In this document: piece after piece, positions 5,174 through 11,023 of the stretch
Layout of the letters: every line of letters begins with the position of its first letter
How positions within the stretch are numbered: position 1 is the first letter of the stretch
Virus record (IMG/VR): IMGVR_UViG_3300036851_000164
Span: 1-46,773 of that record
Length of the DNA: 46,773 nt
Source: a virus
Reading direction: 5' to 3' (one strand)
The notes under the pieces: model-generated
Told to the model about the DNA's origin: nothing
Seen by the model: only the letters and a program-made list of their open reading frames with translations
Databases searched by the model: none
Translations under genes and position numbers: made by a program

Positions 5174-5328
5174 GGCGGCGGGCAGCTCAAATCTGGGTAT
5201 CACAGTCAGCGTGGCCCGCCGCCGCACCAGCAACCCTCCTGTGGTTGTCACTGCTAAGTTGGCCGGTGCGTTTTGATTTCGGGGCGGGCATTGAATGGCT
5301 GGGTGACAAAGGCAAACTGGCCCGCCGC
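5174..5328 (-). repeat. Palindromic element cluster A (three copies)
   Basis: Copies lie at 5174-5223 (10/10 paired arm bases), 5223-5270 (8/9, plus a G-U pair if read as leftward RNA) and 5281-5328 (8/9). Each has exactly 30 bases between the arms. On the minus strand that interval begins CA and holds a core like TGATACCCA, TGACAACCA or TGTCACCCA at the same offset. The last codons of the IS110-like gene read through all three, and its stop codon lies inside the copy at 5174-5223. Confidence 0.85.
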
Positions 5329-6341
5329 CACGCCTGCCACAGATCGCGCAGCAAGCGTTTCTCCATGTAGCGTTGCGCGCGGCGATGAATATGCCCGTCA
5401 GACATGAACTCGCTGGCACGCTTTGCTGGTATCTTCGCCGCAGGTGCGACCGTTAGTCCGCTCTCTAGGGCGCGCTGGCGCTCATACTCTTTGCGAGCGA
5501 GATAAATGGCCCGATACTCGCCGTCGCCATTTCCCCTAATGAGCGCGTCACCGATGTTCCACATGCGCGAGCGACGCAGTCGGTTATAACCGTGCTCGAT
5601 CCAATCATCTTTCGCCGCTGACTTGCTCAAGCCGCCCTGGCGCACGCCGTCCATGACGGCGAGTCCCATGCGCTTCCAGAGTTTGCTGGGGGTAGCGTAA
5701 TTGGATAGATCACCCGCTTCGGCAACGATGATCGCCAGTGAGACTTCACCGAAGCCTCTGATCGTCTCGACCAAGGAATATACGGGAAGCTGCTTGGCGA
5801 GATTCGCCATTTCCGTCTTTGCCTGCTTCTCGATCGCGTCGAACGGTGCGCGAGAGGCTATTGCGGCCAAGATCACGGCACGCCATTCGATGTAGGCGGG
5901 CTCGTCAACGCCGTCCGACTTGCCTTTAGCTTCGGCTTCTCCGAGTGAGATCAAGTCCTGCGCTTGGGAGTTGATCCGCTTGCGGTCGGCGTCCGGTAGC
6001 GCGCGTGACCAACCTAGCGCCGTGCGTAGGAAACTACCCAAGGCAAGATCGGCCCGTTTGCGTTGTTCCATCGCAAATACACGCTGGCGATGCCAGCCGC
6101 GGATTTCCGAAATGAGTGGCCCGGAGTCGGCAGCTGCACGATGGGCGTCACTGCCAGGGTGGCCGTCTCCGGGCCTGCGGGCACCGATTGCTTGGGTGTC
6201 AACTGCAACTTGGCCCGCAGTAAGAGGATCGGCGGGGGCAGCCGTGTCGTGGGCATCATCGGGAGTGAGGCCCCCGCCGTTGGCGTCGGCATCTACAAGT
6301 TGGGCATCATAGGCCAGGTGGCCTTCGCCATTCTTAGGCAT
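5187..6341 (-). CDS. Phage protein with IS110-type (Transposase_20-like) domain and inserted repeats
   Basis: A 384-residue protein. Residues about 7-75 are four repeat peptides (GHLAYDAQ, GLTPDDAH, GQVAVDTQ, GHPGSDAH). From about residue 80 there is a helical region, then a helix-hairpin-helix-like segment (IRGFGEVSLAIIVAEAGDL, then WKRMGLAV) resembling the C-terminal domain of IS110-family transposases. The place where IS110 enzymes usually read QSG here reads RQGG, so the catalytic serine seems absent, and no DEDD N-terminal domain is visible. It is therefore likely a DNA-binding relative rather than an active transposase. The last ~50 residues are read through element cluster A. Confidence 0.7.
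   Translation of the reverse strand: MPKNGEGHLAYDAQLVDADANGGGLTPDDAHDTAAPADPLTAGQVAVDTQAIGARRPGDGHPGSDAHRAAADSGPLISEIRGWHRQRVFAMEQRKRADLALGSFLRTALGWSRALPDADRKRINSQAQDLISLGEAEAKGKSDGVDEPAYIEWRAVILAAIASRAPFDAIEKQAKTEMANLAKQLPVYSLVETIRGFGEVSLAIIVAEAGDLSNYATPSKLWKRMGLAVMDGVRQGGLSKSAAKDDWIEHGYNRLRRSRMWNIGDALIRGNGDGEYRAIYLARKEYERQRALESGLTVAPAAKIPAKRASEFMSDGHIHRRAQRYMEKRLLRDLWQAWRRASLPLSPSHSMPAPKSKRTGQLSSDNHRRVAGAAAGHADCDTQI
6118..6330 (-). repeat. Palindromic element cluster B (four tandem copies)
   Basis: Copies lie at 6118-6175 (arms 13/14), 6175-6220 (8/8), 6230-6279 (10/10) and 6281-6330 (8/10). Each interval between arms is 30 bases, and neighbours abut or share one base. Minus-strand cores read TGACGCCCA, TGACACCCA, TGATGCCCA and TGATGCCCA at the same offset. 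Spacing between copies is 51, 57 and 51 bases, all multiples of three, so the reading frame of the host gene is kept. Confidence 0.88.
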
Positions 6342-6978
6342 GGGCGCCCTCCATCAGTCGGAGAGCGCGCGGTCCGCTTTCAAGAATGTCCTTGACCTGT
6401 TTCTCGTTGGCGACTTTCTCAAGCGGCGTCTTGTCGTCGTCAGGCCATGCGATCTCCGTCACCATGCGATTGCAAATGTGCTCGCCGATGTGGAACTTGC
6501 GGGCGAAGTTGATCCAGTCGGCTTTGGTTGAGCTTCGCAAGCGAAGCTCGCCGCCAATGGTGCGGTCCCAAAAGCCATGAGCGACCGTCTTGCGGACCTT
6601 GCCAGCGGCAGCGACCTCGCCAGCGGTCGGCTCACGATGTGTCGGCAATGACCTCGAGTGCTGGCGGACAGACACGGCAAGAAACGGCTGGCCTTTCGGC
6701 ATGCCCGCGATGGCCGTGCTGCCGCGAGCGGCGCTGGCATCGATAGCCTGGGCATCACCCGAAATTTGGCCAGCGCCTTTGATAAGATCGGGGCGGGCAT
6801 TCCATTTCTGGGCATCATCAACAACGTGGCCCGCCCCGGAATAAGCGGCTTGTGCAATAGCAATCAGTCGCTCGAGCGTGCCGCCGGCATTCGCCCATTT
6901 CGCTATGGCGATATTTAATTCGACCTCCCGCTGACCAGGGCCGCCTGCATGCTTCATTGCATCGCTGATCGCTGTCAT
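6334..6978 (-). CDS. Phage hypothetical protein interrupted by two palindromic elements
   Basis: A 214-residue protein and the first gene after PL. Its N-terminus (EVELNIAIAKWANAGGTLER) and the segment AGKVRKTVAHGFWDRT are recognisable as a recurring alphaproteobacterial phage protein, from memory. Residues about 47-83 are two repeat peptides (GHVVDDAQ, GQISGDAQ) from element cluster C. CGGAGAG lies before the ATG at 6978. It overlaps the next gene by 8 bases. Function unknown. Confidence 0.7.
   Translation of the reverse strand: MTAISDAMKHAGGPGQREVELNIAIAKWANAGGTLERLIAIAQAAYSGAGHVVDDAQKWNARPDLIKGAGQISGDAQAIDASAARGSTAIAGMPKGQPFLAVSVRQHSRSLPTHREPTAGEVAAAGKVRKTVAHGFWDRTIGGELRLRSSTKADWINFARKFHIGEHICNRMVTEIAWPDDDKTPLEKVANEKQVKDILESGPRALRLMEGAHA
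6730..6838 (-). repeat. Palindromic element cluster C (two copies)
   Basis: Copies lie at 6730-6777 (arms GGCGCTGGC, 9/9) and 6789-6838 (arms CGGGGCGGGC, 10/10). Each has a 30-base interval and a minus-strand core TGATGCCCA. Copy spacing is 60 bases, so both are in the same frame. The arm sequences differ between the two copies, yet each is perfectly self-complementary. Confidence 0.88.
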
Positions 6979-7094: not shown

Positions 7095-7123
7095 AATATC
7101 GGACTAATTGTCCGGCTTGTCAA
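7095..7123 (-). promoter_or_regulatory. Leftward early promoter PL
   Basis: On the minus strand TTGACA (7123-7118), a 17-base spacer and GATATT (7100-7095) form a near-consensus sigma-70 promoter. Operator OL1 lies in the spacer. The start point should fall near 7088, leaving a leader of about 110 bases before the gene at 6978. The stretch 6979-7300 has no gene; it holds this promoter, three operators and the leader hairpin. Confidence 0.85.
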
Positions 7124-7171
7124 GGACAAATTATCCGAACAGTGGAATCAGAAAATCGGACAGGATTGCGG
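7100..7171. promoter_or_regulatory. Left operator cluster OL1, OL2, OL3
   Basis: Three 15-base sites of consensus CGGACAAATTATCCG: OL1 at 7100-7114 (CGGACTAATTGTCCG), OL2 at 7123-7137 (AGGACAAATTATCCG) and a weaker OL3 at 7157-7171 (CGGACAGGATTGCGG). Site starts are 23 and 34 bases apart, the mirror image of the right cluster. OL1 sits between the PL -35 and -10 boxes, so binding should block PL. Confidence 0.8.
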
Positions 7172-7300: not shown

Positions 7301-7636
7301 CTACGGGGAAACGGCAGACTTTCTGGTGCCGCTGCCCCGAATTGCCGTTCGCGGTCGCCGAAGGCCACTTCCGGCCCTTCGGCTTGGCACCTCCCCGGCC
7401 CTTGATTCGCCGACTCTGAAAAGCTTGTCGGCGCTGACATTGCATATCTCGCAAAAAGCGGGAATTACGTCATGGGGGAGGGGATTAACACTCTCGCACT
7501 TTCGATAGGTGTCATATTCAAGGCCAAGATCAAGAGCCATGCCCTTGATCGAGAAACCGGCCAAGGATCGGGCCGCTTTAACGCGGCCTGCAAAAGCTCT
7601 GATGTAAGCCTTGTCCTGCTTGCGGCGCTTGGCCAT
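7301..7636 (-). CDS. XRE-family phage repressor (CI-like)
   Basis: A 111-residue protein with an N-terminal helix-turn-helix (GRVKAARSLAGFSIKGMALDLGLEYDT, about residues 18-44; recognition helix probably around LGLEYDTYRKCES). No S24 peptidase domain follows; the tail is a short basic stretch. The start MAKRRKQDK at 7636 is preferred to an in-frame GTG at 7687, which would place the N-terminus across the operators. It lies between OL and OR as in lambdoid immunity regions. Control of the lytic/lysogenic choice is inferred. Confidence 0.8.
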   Translation of the reverse strand: MAKRRKQDKAYIRAFAGRVKAARSLAGFSIKGMALDLGLEYDTYRKCESVNPLPHDVIPAFCEICNVSADKLFRVGESRAGEVPSRRAGSGLRRPRTAIRGSGTRKSAVSP

Positions 7637-7646
7637 CCCACAATTT

Positions 7647-7718
7647 AAGACAAATTGTCCGGGGGAGCTATTCCCACAGCCGGACAAACTATCCTTGACA
7701 TATCGGACAAATTATCCG
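7647..7718. promoter_or_regulatory. Right operator cluster OR1, OR2, OR3
   Basis: Sites lie at 7704-7718 (OR1, CGGACAAATTATCCG, inside the 21-base near-palindrome 7701-7721), 7681-7695 (OR2, CGGACAAACTATCCT) and 7647-7661 (OR3, AAGACAAATTGTCCG, one weak half). Starts are 23 and 34 bases apart. OR1 fills the PR spacer; OR3 lies 11 bases from the repressor start and could autoregulate it. Confidence 0.85.
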
Positions 7719-7723
7719 ATATA
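7695..7723 (+). promoter_or_regulatory. Rightward early promoter PR
   Basis: TTGACA at 7695-7700, a 17-base spacer and GATATA at 7718-7723. The expected start point (7729-7731) coincides with the ATG of the next gene at 7731, so the transcript would have almost no leader. Confidence 0.85.
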
Positions 7724-7730
7724 AGCTGGC

Positions 7731-7997
7731 ATGATTTCCAGCTTCCGCGACGTTATCGCCTTTTGGGACTCGCCCACCGAAATGGCCGCTGCTGTCGGCG
7801 CCAAGGCCGACACCGTCCGCAAATGGGCTGAGCGCGACCGTATCCCCGACGAATACTGGCAACGTACGATTGATGCAGCGAGTTTGCGCGGCAAAGCCGT
7901 GACTGCCGCCGATCTTACCCGTTTGGCCGCGGAGAAATTATCGCCTCCCGAGTTTGCGGGGGCGGAGCCGGACGCGCTGACGCGGGGGACCATCTAG
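7731..7997 (+). CDS. Cro-like / YdaS-like DNA-binding protein
   Basis: An 88-residue protein with a helix-turn-helix near residues 15-40 (TEMAAAVGAKADTVRKWAER, then DRIPDEYW), the pattern of Cro/YdaS-type phage regulators, divergent from the repressor gene. It should bind the same operators and oppose the repressor. No ribosome binding site is seen before the ATG, which fits a leaderless message from PR. Confidence 0.82.
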   Translation: MISSFRDVIAFWDSPTEMAAAVGAKADTVRKWAERDRIPDEYWQRTIDAASLRGKAVTAADLTRLAAEKLSPPEFAGAEPDALTRGTI

Positions 7998-9990: not shown

Positions 9991-11007
9991 GTGCGAGTCT
10001 ACTACAACGAGATCGACCGCTATTGCTGCGATTGGCTGCAAAACCTCATGGATGCCGGGCTGATAACGCCGGGAAAGATTGATGACCGAAGCATTGCCGA
10101 TGTCAGCCCGGAAGATGTCAGAGGCTACAGCCGCGTCCATTTCTTCGCCGGAATTGCCGGGTGGGACCTCGCCCTCCGACTTGCCGGATGGCCCGACGAC
10201 AGACCTGTTTGGACAGGAAGCTGCCCCTGCCAGCCCTTCTCAGCCGCTGGCAAAGGCAAAGCATCAGGCGATGAACGCCATCTGTGGCCCGAATGGTTCC
10301 GGCTTATCCGCGCAATTCGACCGCCAACAATCTTTGGTGAACAGGTTGAAGCGGCTGTTGGATGGGGCTGGCTCGACCTTGTTCACTCTGACCTGGAAGC
10401 GGAAGGCTACGCCGTTGGGTCGGCCGTATTACCAGCTTGCGGCATCGGCGCGCCGCATATCCGGCAGCGATTGTGGTTCGTGGCCGACGCCGATGGTTGG
10501 CAACACGGCGGGTTGCATGGAGAGCCCGCATGGGTATGTGAGCCCGACCGGGAACAGGCGCGGCCATCAAGGCAATCACATGCTCAGGCTTGCACGGTTG
10601 GCGAGTTGGCCCACTCCGACAGTTCACGATGCCGAGCGGGGCGGCCAGGAGAAGCGGGCGCAGGGCGAGACGCGCCACGGCTCGAACCTACAGGACTTCG
10701 CGCTGACGGCGGCTTGGGCAACGCCCAGGACAAGCGATGCAAAGGGCGGTCAACGGCTGATGACGCCGGATGGCAAGCGCACCAACAAGGCGGGCGACAA
10801 GGAATACGGGCCGAACCTTCAGGATCAAGCGGCTCTCATTGGTCCGACCTCATCTGGCTCCCCTGCACAGACGGCAAGCAAAGGCCAACTCAATCCGGCA
10901 TTTTCCCTCTGGCTCATGGGGTTCCCGCCCGAGTGGCTAAGCTGCGCGCCGCAGGCAACGCGATCAACCCGTGGCAAGCCGTCCCGTTCATCAAAGCGGC
11001 AATGTGA
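9991..11007 (+). CDS. DNA cytosine-5 methyltransferase (GTG start)
   Basis: A 338-residue enzyme transferring methyl groups to cytosine C5. Motif I is around HFFAGIAGWDLAL (about 50-62), motif IV is GSCPCQPFSAAG (about 78-89), motif VI is IFGEQV (about 114-119), motif VIII is the IRQRLWFVAD segment (about 158-167), and motif X is LRAAGNAINPWQAVPFI near the end. GTG 9991 follows a GGGAGAGGGG-like purine stretch. It is fully overlapped from 10082 by a second long frame. Likely role: self-modification against restriction, or regulation. Confidence 0.88.
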   Translation: MRVYYNEIDRYCCDWLQNLMDAGLITPGKIDDRSIADVSPEDVRGYSRVHFFAGIAGWDLALRLAGWPDDRPVWTGSCPCQPFSAAGKGKASGDERHLWPEWFRLIRAIRPPTIFGEQVEAAVGWGWLDLVHSDLEAEGYAVGSAVLPACGIGAPHIRQRLWFVADADGWQHGGLHGEPAWVCEPDREQARPSRQSHAQACTVGELAHSDSSRCRAGRPGEAGAGRDAPRLEPTGLRADGGLGNAQDKRCKGRSTADDAGWQAHQQGGRQGIRAEPSGSSGSHWSDLIWLPCTDGKQRPTQSGIFPLAHGVPARVAKLRAAGNAINPWQAVPFIKAAM

Positions 11008-11023
11008 GGGGATGGATAGATGA
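10082..11023 (+). CDS. Overprinted protein in the +1 frame of the methyltransferase gene
   Basis: A 313-residue frame lies almost wholly inside the methyltransferase gene. It reads like a recurrent phage family known from other genomes (from memory): DLFGQEAAPASPSQP, GSTLFTLTWKRKATPLGRPYY, SWPTPMVGN, ASWPTPTVHDAERGG, and NPAFSLWLMGFPPEWLSCAP near the C-terminus. The TGA at 11021-11023 overlaps the ATG of the next gene, so translation coupling is possible. It could be a true dual-coded protein or a long open shadow kept by codon bias; repeated conservation of the SLWLMGFPPEW block favours a protein. Confidence 0.6.
   Translation: MTEALPMSARKMSEATAASISSPELPGGTSPSDLPDGPTTDLFGQEAAPASPSQPLAKAKHQAMNAICGPNGSGLSAQFDRQQSLVNRLKRLLDGAGSTLFTLTWKRKATPLGRPYYQLAASARRISGSDCGSWPTPMVGNTAGCMESPHGYVSPTGNRRGHQGNHMLRLARLASWPTPTVHDAERGGQEKRAQGETRHGSNLQDFALTAAWATPRTSDAKGGQRLMTPDGKRTNKAGDKEYGPNLQDQAALIGPTSSGSPAQTASKGQLNPAFSLWLMGFPPEWLSCAPQATRSTRGKPSRSSKRQCEGMDR

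What the first reader, a model, noticed from the sequence alone, without database searches (positions are those of the whole stretch)
6118..6838. Elements inserted in frame as Gly-Gln/His-x3-Asp-Ala/Thr-Gln peptides
In eight of nine copies the genes read the element in one frame, giving GHVVDDAQ, GQISGDAQ, GQVAVDTQ, GHLAYDAQ and similar. Copy spacing in clusters B and C (51, 57, 51, 60) is always a multiple of three. This resembles the in-gene palindromic repeats of Rickettsia in style, though the sequence is different. Similar peptide strings occur, as I recall, in unrelated rhizobial proteins, which would suggest a mobile in-frame element.
Basis: partly seen in the sequence, partly recalled or inferred. 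Interest (0 to 1): 0.75.

Follow-up and report, generated by a model that had tools for sequence, protein, structure and literature searches.

The report
Guide-RNA array inside phage coding genes
A temperate phage carries an array of two-part guide RNAs (a TIGR-Tas system), and the array is written inside the reading frames of the guide-binding gene and its partner gene, so the same stretch of messenger RNA appears to serve both as protein code and as guide-RNA precursor.

Summary
The nine elements are units of a TIGR stem-loop array, a published dual-spacer guide-RNA kind. Each unit, on the minus strand, is a private stem, CCA, a 9-nt spacer, TGAYRCCCA, a 9-nt spacer, TG and the private stem. 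The 'transposase-like' gene they flank is tasA: its profile matches TasR (PDB 9MTY) at E=1.2e-10, and its model matches TasR and TasH best.

In 109 related loci a unit finder gives 219 units on the tas strand, 0 on the other, and 1 in a shuffle. Selected blind to stems, 183 units pair 7.05 of 8 stem positions, against 4.05 when arms are swapped.

What looks new is the in-frame embedding. Units sit inside tas and inside a conserved, undescribed gene ("U") just upstream. In 31 of 61 loci tas starts on U's stop codon and stays open to its Nop core (other frames: 0 and 3; p=7e-15). In array-bearing U proteins, units interrupt a linker between two conserved helical domains.

Spacers show no codon periodicity, so the peptides look like tolerated by-products. 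No target was found. Processing, translation and targets are untested. Verdict: new variant of a known kind.

The parts
5187..6341 (-). tasA gene: ORF of 384 aa. The start ATG (6341) overlaps the stop of gene U (ATGCCTAA). N-terminal tail with four TIGR units, Nop core about 5307-6110, C-terminal tail running into cluster A
   Evidence: PF02371 E=5.7e-5 and phrog_4285 E=8e-25; profile hit to TasR PDB 9MTY E=1.2e-10; AlphaFold model pLDDT 85.5 with TasR/TasH as top Foldseek hits
6334..6978 (-). gene U: conserved partner gene upstream of tas, 214 aa; N- and C-terminal domains separated by two in-frame TIGR units
   Evidence: homologues directly upstream of tas in nearly all loci; leave-one-out HMM E=4.3e-7 for the window copy; no Pfam, PHROG or PDB family
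6790..6837 (-). TIGR unit 1 (in gene U): spacers CGTTGTTGA / GAAATGGAA, 8/8 stem
6730..6777 (-). TIGR unit 2 (in gene U): spacers AATTTCGGG / GGCTATCGA, 8/8 stem
6282..6329 (-). TIGR unit 3 (tas N-tail): spacers CCTGGCCTA / ACTTGTAGA, 6/8 stem
6231..6278 (-). TIGR unit 4 (tas N-tail), box C CCT instead of CCA: spacers CACTCCCGA / CGACACGGC, 8/8 stem
   Evidence: read from the sequence
6174..6221 (-). TIGR unit 5 (tas N-tail): spacers AGTTGCAGT / AGCAATCGG, 7/8 stem
6123..6170 (-). TIGR unit 6 (tas N-tail): spacers CCCTGGCAG / TCGTGCAGC, 7/8 stem
5281..5328 (-). TIGR unit 7 (tas C-tail, other phase): spacers GTTTGCCTT / GCCATTCAA, 7/8 stem
5223..5270 (-). TIGR unit 8 (tas C-tail): spacers ACTTAGCAG / CAGGAGGGT, 8/8 stem
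5175..5222 (-). TIGR unit 9, straddling the tas stop codon: spacers CGCTGACTG / GATTTGAGC, 8/8 stem
7095..7123 (-). predicted sigma-70-type promoter of U-tas (TTGACA-17-GATATT), overlapped by operator-like palindromes at 7099-7115 and 7122-7138
   Evidence: consensus match only
7301..7687 (-). probable phage repressor (looks like an HTH protein by eye), lying between the operator-like sites at 7099-7138 and 7646-7719
   Evidence: translation; operator-like repeats; no Pfam hit for it

Best explanation
This is a TIGR-Tas system of the stem-loop class with a nuclease-less TasA effector, in the leftward early operon of a temperate phage, in which the guide array is embedded in protein-coding sequence. 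The two-gene transcript U-tas serves as mRNA and as guide precursor. Each unit folds as a private stem presenting box C (CCA), spacer A, loop TGAYRCCCA, spacer B and box D (TG). Tas dimers bind a unit, and a host nuclease would release it. The RNP would then bind DNA whose top strand reads spacer A followed by the reverse complement of spacer B, and act without cutting, most likely by blocking transcription or replication of a competing element or by regulating phage or host genes. Shown here by sequence: unit anatomy, Tas homology, strand bias, private stems, and in-frame embedding with tas starting on the U stop codon. Inferred from Faure et al. 2025 (PMC12045711): transcription, processing, Tas binding and dual-strand targeting. 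My inference: embedding puts guides under the phage's repressor-controlled promoter and couples guide supply to Tas and U synthesis, while flexible tails and linkers tolerate the encoded peptides.
For: Tas profile vs TasR 9MTY E=1.2e-10; fold hits TasR/TasH, then IS621. 219 units on the tas strand, 0 opposite, 1 in a shuffle over 109 loci. Stem-blind selection gives 183 vs 1 by strand; stems pair 7.05/8 vs 4.05 +/- 0.10 for swapped arms. Embedding: U HMM trained on unit-less proteins matches array-bearing U on both sides of the array, and the AlphaFold U model has its low-confidence linker at residues 75-99 between two helical domains. tas starts on the U stop and is open to the Nop core in 31/61 loci vs 0 and 3 for the other frames, p=6.5e-15. 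Units in U: 17 of 18 in one phase. Repressor-type operators and promoter ahead of U.
Against: No RNA or proteomic data. Spacers in embedded units lack codon periodicity, so protein-level selection on the peptides is not seen. 26 of 61 loci have a non-open interval between U and the Nop core in the tas frame, so embedding is common, not obligatory. Some loci mix phases 1 and 2 (L017, L070, L098, L110). Several relatives (L021-L031, RHph_X2_25) have tas and U but no unit detectable with this motif. No target found.
Confidence: 0.85

Rival explanations
1. TIGR array whose overlap with the reading frames is incidental: arrays sit next to tas and U and GC-rich DNA stays open by chance; the real tas starts at its Nop core.
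For: Two of three frames through a unit are free of a forced stop. 26 of 61 loci have a tas frame that is not open back to the U stop. Spacers show no GC3 periodicity.
Against: 31/61 loci start on the U stop and are open in the tas frame vs 0 and 3 in the other frames. In U the array lies between two conserved domains of one protein. Units in U are 17:1 in one phase.
Confidence: 0.08
2. Mobile palindromic repeat inserting in frame into genes, like Rickettsia palindromic elements.
For: Palindromic, in frame, present in more than one gene.
Against: Stems private and compensatory; spacers unique. Confined to the tas neighbourhood in the window; the unit pattern gave two stemless matches in 397 Hyphomicrobiales genomes. 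The co-occurring protein is TasA, not an autonomous transposase.
Confidence: 0.02
3. Ordinary protein repeat (a tandem structural or adhesive repeat) whose DNA palindromes are a side effect of codon choice.
For: Regular peptide G-[HQ]-x3-D-[AT]-[QH].
Against: Units also occur outside the U and Tas ORFs (119 of 219 units). The DNA-level motif and stem are kept across different phases and loop types. Spacer codons are unconstrained.
Confidence: 0.02
4. Embedding is itself regulatory (an addition to the best explanation, not exclusive of it): Tas bound to units in its own or the U mRNA blocks translation or triggers cleavage of that mRNA, so guide production and Tas/U translation are mutually exclusive and self-limiting.
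For: Units lie between the tas start codon and the Nop core, and between the U domains, in many phages. Processing that releases a unit must cut the mRNA (logic). Tas is required for processing in tested systems (PMC12045711).
Against: No direct data; many relatives have arrays outside the coding sequence.
Confidence: 0.3

Closest known systems
TIGR-TasA with stem-loop array (Faure et al. 2025, PMC12045711; Peromyscus gut contig, 13 units in three subarrays)
   Same: solo Nop-domain effector; [quoted passage not shown] palindromic variable stems in place of edge repeats; loop of conserved sequence; tas-adjacent array; phage-borne
   Different: units lie inside the coding sequence of tas and of a conserved upstream gene U; a two-gene U-tas operon. 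The paper's main text never mentions reading frames, and the operon partner it names is ParB-like; its supplement could not be read
TIGR dual-repeat arrays of TasR/TasH
   Same: 9-nt spacers; UG...CCA loop repeat; dual-strand target logic assumed
   Different: no fixed edge repeat, private stems instead; no RuvC or HNH domain
IS110-family transposase with bridge RNA
   Same: Transposase_20 / Nop RNA-binding fold; two guide segments
   Different: no DEDD domain, no single bridge RNA, an array of many units
TnpB omega-RNA overlapping the tnpB coding end (own knowledge, not checked here)
   Same: guide RNA and effector mRNA overlap in one transcript
   Different: one guide at the 3' end there; here an array of guides inside two genes
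Rickettsia palindromic elements (own knowledge)
   Same: palindromic and in frame inside genes
   Different: dispersed, sequence-conserved mobile repeats there; here locus-bound units with private stems and spacers

Membership tests
TIGR-Tas (stem-loop class) | effector with Nop domain homologous to known Tas | tested here: met
   9MTY TasR E=1.2e-10; Foldseek top hits TasR and TasH, prob 1.00
TIGR-Tas (stem-loop class) | tas-adjacent array of units with two 8-12-nt spacers flanked by box C (CCA) and box D (TG) | tested here: met
   nine units with 9-nt spacers in the window; 219 vs 0 by strand in 109 loci
TIGR-Tas (stem-loop class) | variable palindromic stems in place of edge repeats | tested here: met
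   7.05/8 pairs vs 4.05 with swapped arms, 98 distinct arms
TIGR-Tas (stem-loop class) | TasA subtype: no nuclease domain | tested here: met
   only Transposase_20 and related profiles; core of 268 aa folds as Nop
TIGR-Tas (stem-loop class) | array transcribed, processed and bound by Tas | not testable with these tools
   needs RNA sequencing and pulldown
TIGR-Tas (stem-loop class) | RNA-guided binding of DNA with each spacer on one strand | not testable with these tools
   target searches gave chance-level hits
Rickettsia-type palindromic element | dispersed copies in unrelated genes | tested here: not met
   all window copies at the tas locus; two stemless matches in 397 genomes
Rickettsia-type palindromic element | shared sequence across copies including stems | tested here: not met
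   only boxes and loop shared; stems and spacers private
IS110 transposon | N-terminal DEDD catalytic domain | tested here: not met
   only PF02371 matched, residues 189-257
CRISPR array | identical direct repeats of about 25-36 nt separated by spacers | tested here: not met
   no such repeat; conserved blocks are 9 nt plus boxes

The most novel reading that the evidence does not exclude
Coding-embedded TIGR arrays form a regulatory switch. The U-tas mRNA is either translated or diced by Tas-dependent processing into guides, so guide output, Tas and the new partner U are set by one repressor-controlled transcript, and U is a dedicated third component of alphaproteobacterial phage TIGR systems.
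Probability: 0.3. Interest if true: 0.8.

Novelty: new variant of a known kind. Interest (0 to 1): 0.62.

Why it matters
In the papers I could search, TIGR arrays are not described as coding, and the function of TasA is unknown. Here arrays are written into the coding sequence of tas and of a conserved neighbour gene in dozens of phages, which bears on how guides are made, how Tas is controlled, and what TasA does. Gene U is a concrete candidate third component. The locus sits where early genes under phage-repressor control would sit, which suggests a role in lysogeny or competition between phages. Automatic annotation calls these genes transposase or hypothetical, so the arrays may be missed.

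Tried and rejected
Rfam: no match to the region. Targets: all 220 units against 1.05 Mb of loci gave no exact match and 2 with one mismatch (1.1 expected); window units against their own 46.8 kb gave none at <=2 mismatches. Four window targets scanned in IMG/VR gave 6, 3, 11 and 2 hits. Most were in low-GC unrelated phages, and seven of the eleven were one homologous polymerase-like gene family. A hit in a phage zinc-ribbon primase (L126, unit 2) looked attractive but was not repeated in 397 Hyphomicrobiales genomes (five one-mismatch hits, about three expected, none in a primase). Host genomes carrying related tas: no exact target for three Magnetospirillum units. Plasmids: no related tas. 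U: no known family by Pfam, PHROGs, PDB sequence or fold. Multiple-of-three spacing as sole proof of coding was dropped because arrays outside the U and Tas ORFs can also be regular. GC3 periodicity of spacers as coding evidence was tested and absent. Paper searches for TIGR-Tas and tigRNA found no account of coding-embedded arrays, but subscription papers and the supplement of PMC12045711 were not readable.

Full report
What was claimed and what is there. The finding described nine palindromic elements read in one frame as Gly-Gln/His-x3-Asp-Ala/Thr-Gln. The nine copies are real: 6730-6837 (two), 6123-6329 (four) and 5175-5328 (three). Eight of nine are in one phase of the minus-strand ORFs 6334-6978 and 5187-6341. 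Spacings in the middle and upper clusters are 51, 57, 51 and 60. The exception is the copy at 5289-5320, and the last copy contains the stop codon of its ORF.

Identification. Read on the minus strand every copy is: private stem, CCA (CCT in one), 9-nt spacer, a 9-nt loop of the TGAYRCCCA type, 9-nt spacer, TG, private stem complement. This matches the stem-loop arrays described for TIGR systems: two 8-12-nt spacers between box C (CCA) and box D (UG) motifs, with variable palindromic stems in place of edge repeats (PMC12045711). The 384-aa ORF carries PF02371 and phrog_4285. Its family profile finds TasR, PDB 9MTY, the TasR structure deposited by those authors, at E=1.2e-10. The AlphaFold model of its core (pLDDT 85.5) has TasR and TasH as its ten best solved matches, followed by IS621 recombinase. 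No nuclease domain was found, so it is TasA.

Controls. A finder requiring the boxes, spacers and stem, run on 109 related loci (942 kb, mostly IMG/VR), found 219 distinct units on the tas strand, none on the opposite strand and one in a shuffled copy. When units were picked without looking at stems, 183 lay on the tas strand and 1 on the other. Their flanks pair at 7.05 of 8 positions, against 4.05 +/- 0.10 when arms are swapped between units, with 98 different 5' arms among the 156 well-paired units. This is strong compensatory evidence for a structured RNA with copy-specific stems.

In-frame embedding. Directly upstream of tas, nearly all loci carry a gene I call U. An HMM from unit-less U proteins matches array-bearing U proteins in two pieces flanking the array, for example L001 residues 18-120 and 169-261, and L003 residues 23-125 and 171-266. 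Leave-one-out searches recover the window copy at E=4.3e-7. The model of a unit-less U (pLDDT 86) shows two helical domains joined by a low-confidence linker at residues 75-99, the region where other phages carry units. Of 18 units inside U, 17 share one phase. For tas, 61 loci have at least 120 nt between the U stop and the Nop core. A start codon overlapping the U stop with an uninterrupted frame to the Nop core is present in 31 loci in the tas frame, but in 0 and 3 loci in the other two frames (p=6.5e-15). In the subset with detected units in that interval, the tas frame is open in 21 of 34, against 5 and 2 for the other frames. In the window the overlap is ATGCCTAA, with tas starting at 6341. 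So in about half of this clade the N-tail, often array-bearing, is part of tas.

What the peptides are. Embedded spacers have no third-position composition bias. The encoded peptides therefore appear tolerated rather than selected. The constraints seen are the guide boxes, the stems and the absence of stops. The other loci keep the array outside an open tas frame, and some embedded arrays mix phases 1 and 2 (L017, L070, L098, L110), so embedding is frequent but not obligatory.

Context. The phage record is 46,773 bp with a 127-nt terminal repeat and carries an integrase (weak Pfam match), a large terminase, and ERF and YqaJ recombination genes. U is preceded by a sigma-70-like promoter (7123-7095) lying among operator-like palindromes (TCGGACAAATTATCCGA type at 7099 and 7122, with further sites at 7646, 7680 and 7703 on the far side of a probable repressor gene). 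U-tas thus appears to be the start of the leftward early operon. In the isolated Rhizobium phage RHph_X2_25 the homologous pair also lies beside an annotated repressor, though no units were found there with this motif.

Not mobile, not dispersed. The exact unit pattern was found in two of 397 Hyphomicrobiales genomes, both without complementary arms. Related tas genes are in 2 of 397.

Targets. Using the published geometry (spacer A followed by the reverse complement of spacer B, gap 0-2; the order was derived here from the 3' overhang stated in PMC12045711), no target stood above chance: own genome, 1.05 Mb of loci, four IMG/VR scans, 397 genomes for unit 2, and host genomes.

Conclusion. The elements are guide-RNA units of a TIGR-TasA system, a known kind. 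Their conserved placement inside the coding sequences of tas and of an undescribed partner gene is, as far as the readable literature goes, a new variant. Function, processing and translation remain untested.

Noticed in passing
window 9991-11007 (+) and 10079-11023 (+): Two same-strand ORFs overlap by about 930 nt in different frames and both match established families over nearly their full length: phrog_363 (DNA methyltransferase, E=4.8e-73) and phrog_1008 (E=9.9e-37; similar ORF in 202 phage records). A large overlapping gene pair.
   Followed up: partly
window 7095-7138 and 7646-7719: Five operator-like palindromes (TCGGACAAATTATCCGA type) flank a probable repressor gene 7301-7687, a lambda-like layout with U-tas on one side and a small divergent gene (7731-7997) on the other.
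   Followed up: partly
L103, L105, L101, L110, L107: Related phages have 9-22 TIGR units in several clusters around tas, in L103 and L105 often alternating 48/60-nt spacing (loop TGAAACCCA), suggesting a paired-unit architecture.
   Followed up: no
L021-L031; L132 (RHph_X2_25): tas and U without units detectable by this motif; either the boxes differ or the arrays are elsewhere.
   Followed up: no
L002, L004, L008, L013, L062, L108: Alternative loop types in which box D and box C are joined by a hairpin or a longer linker (e.g. TGTCCAGCAGGACCA, TGGCGGCGGCGCCGCCCA) are also embedded in frame; in L013 units lie in the Tas C-tail in a different phase.
   Followed up: partly
L126 3142-3160: The predicted target of window unit 2 matches exactly (1-nt gap) a zinc-ribbon primase gene of a GC-rich phage; not supported by further hits.
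   Followed up: yes
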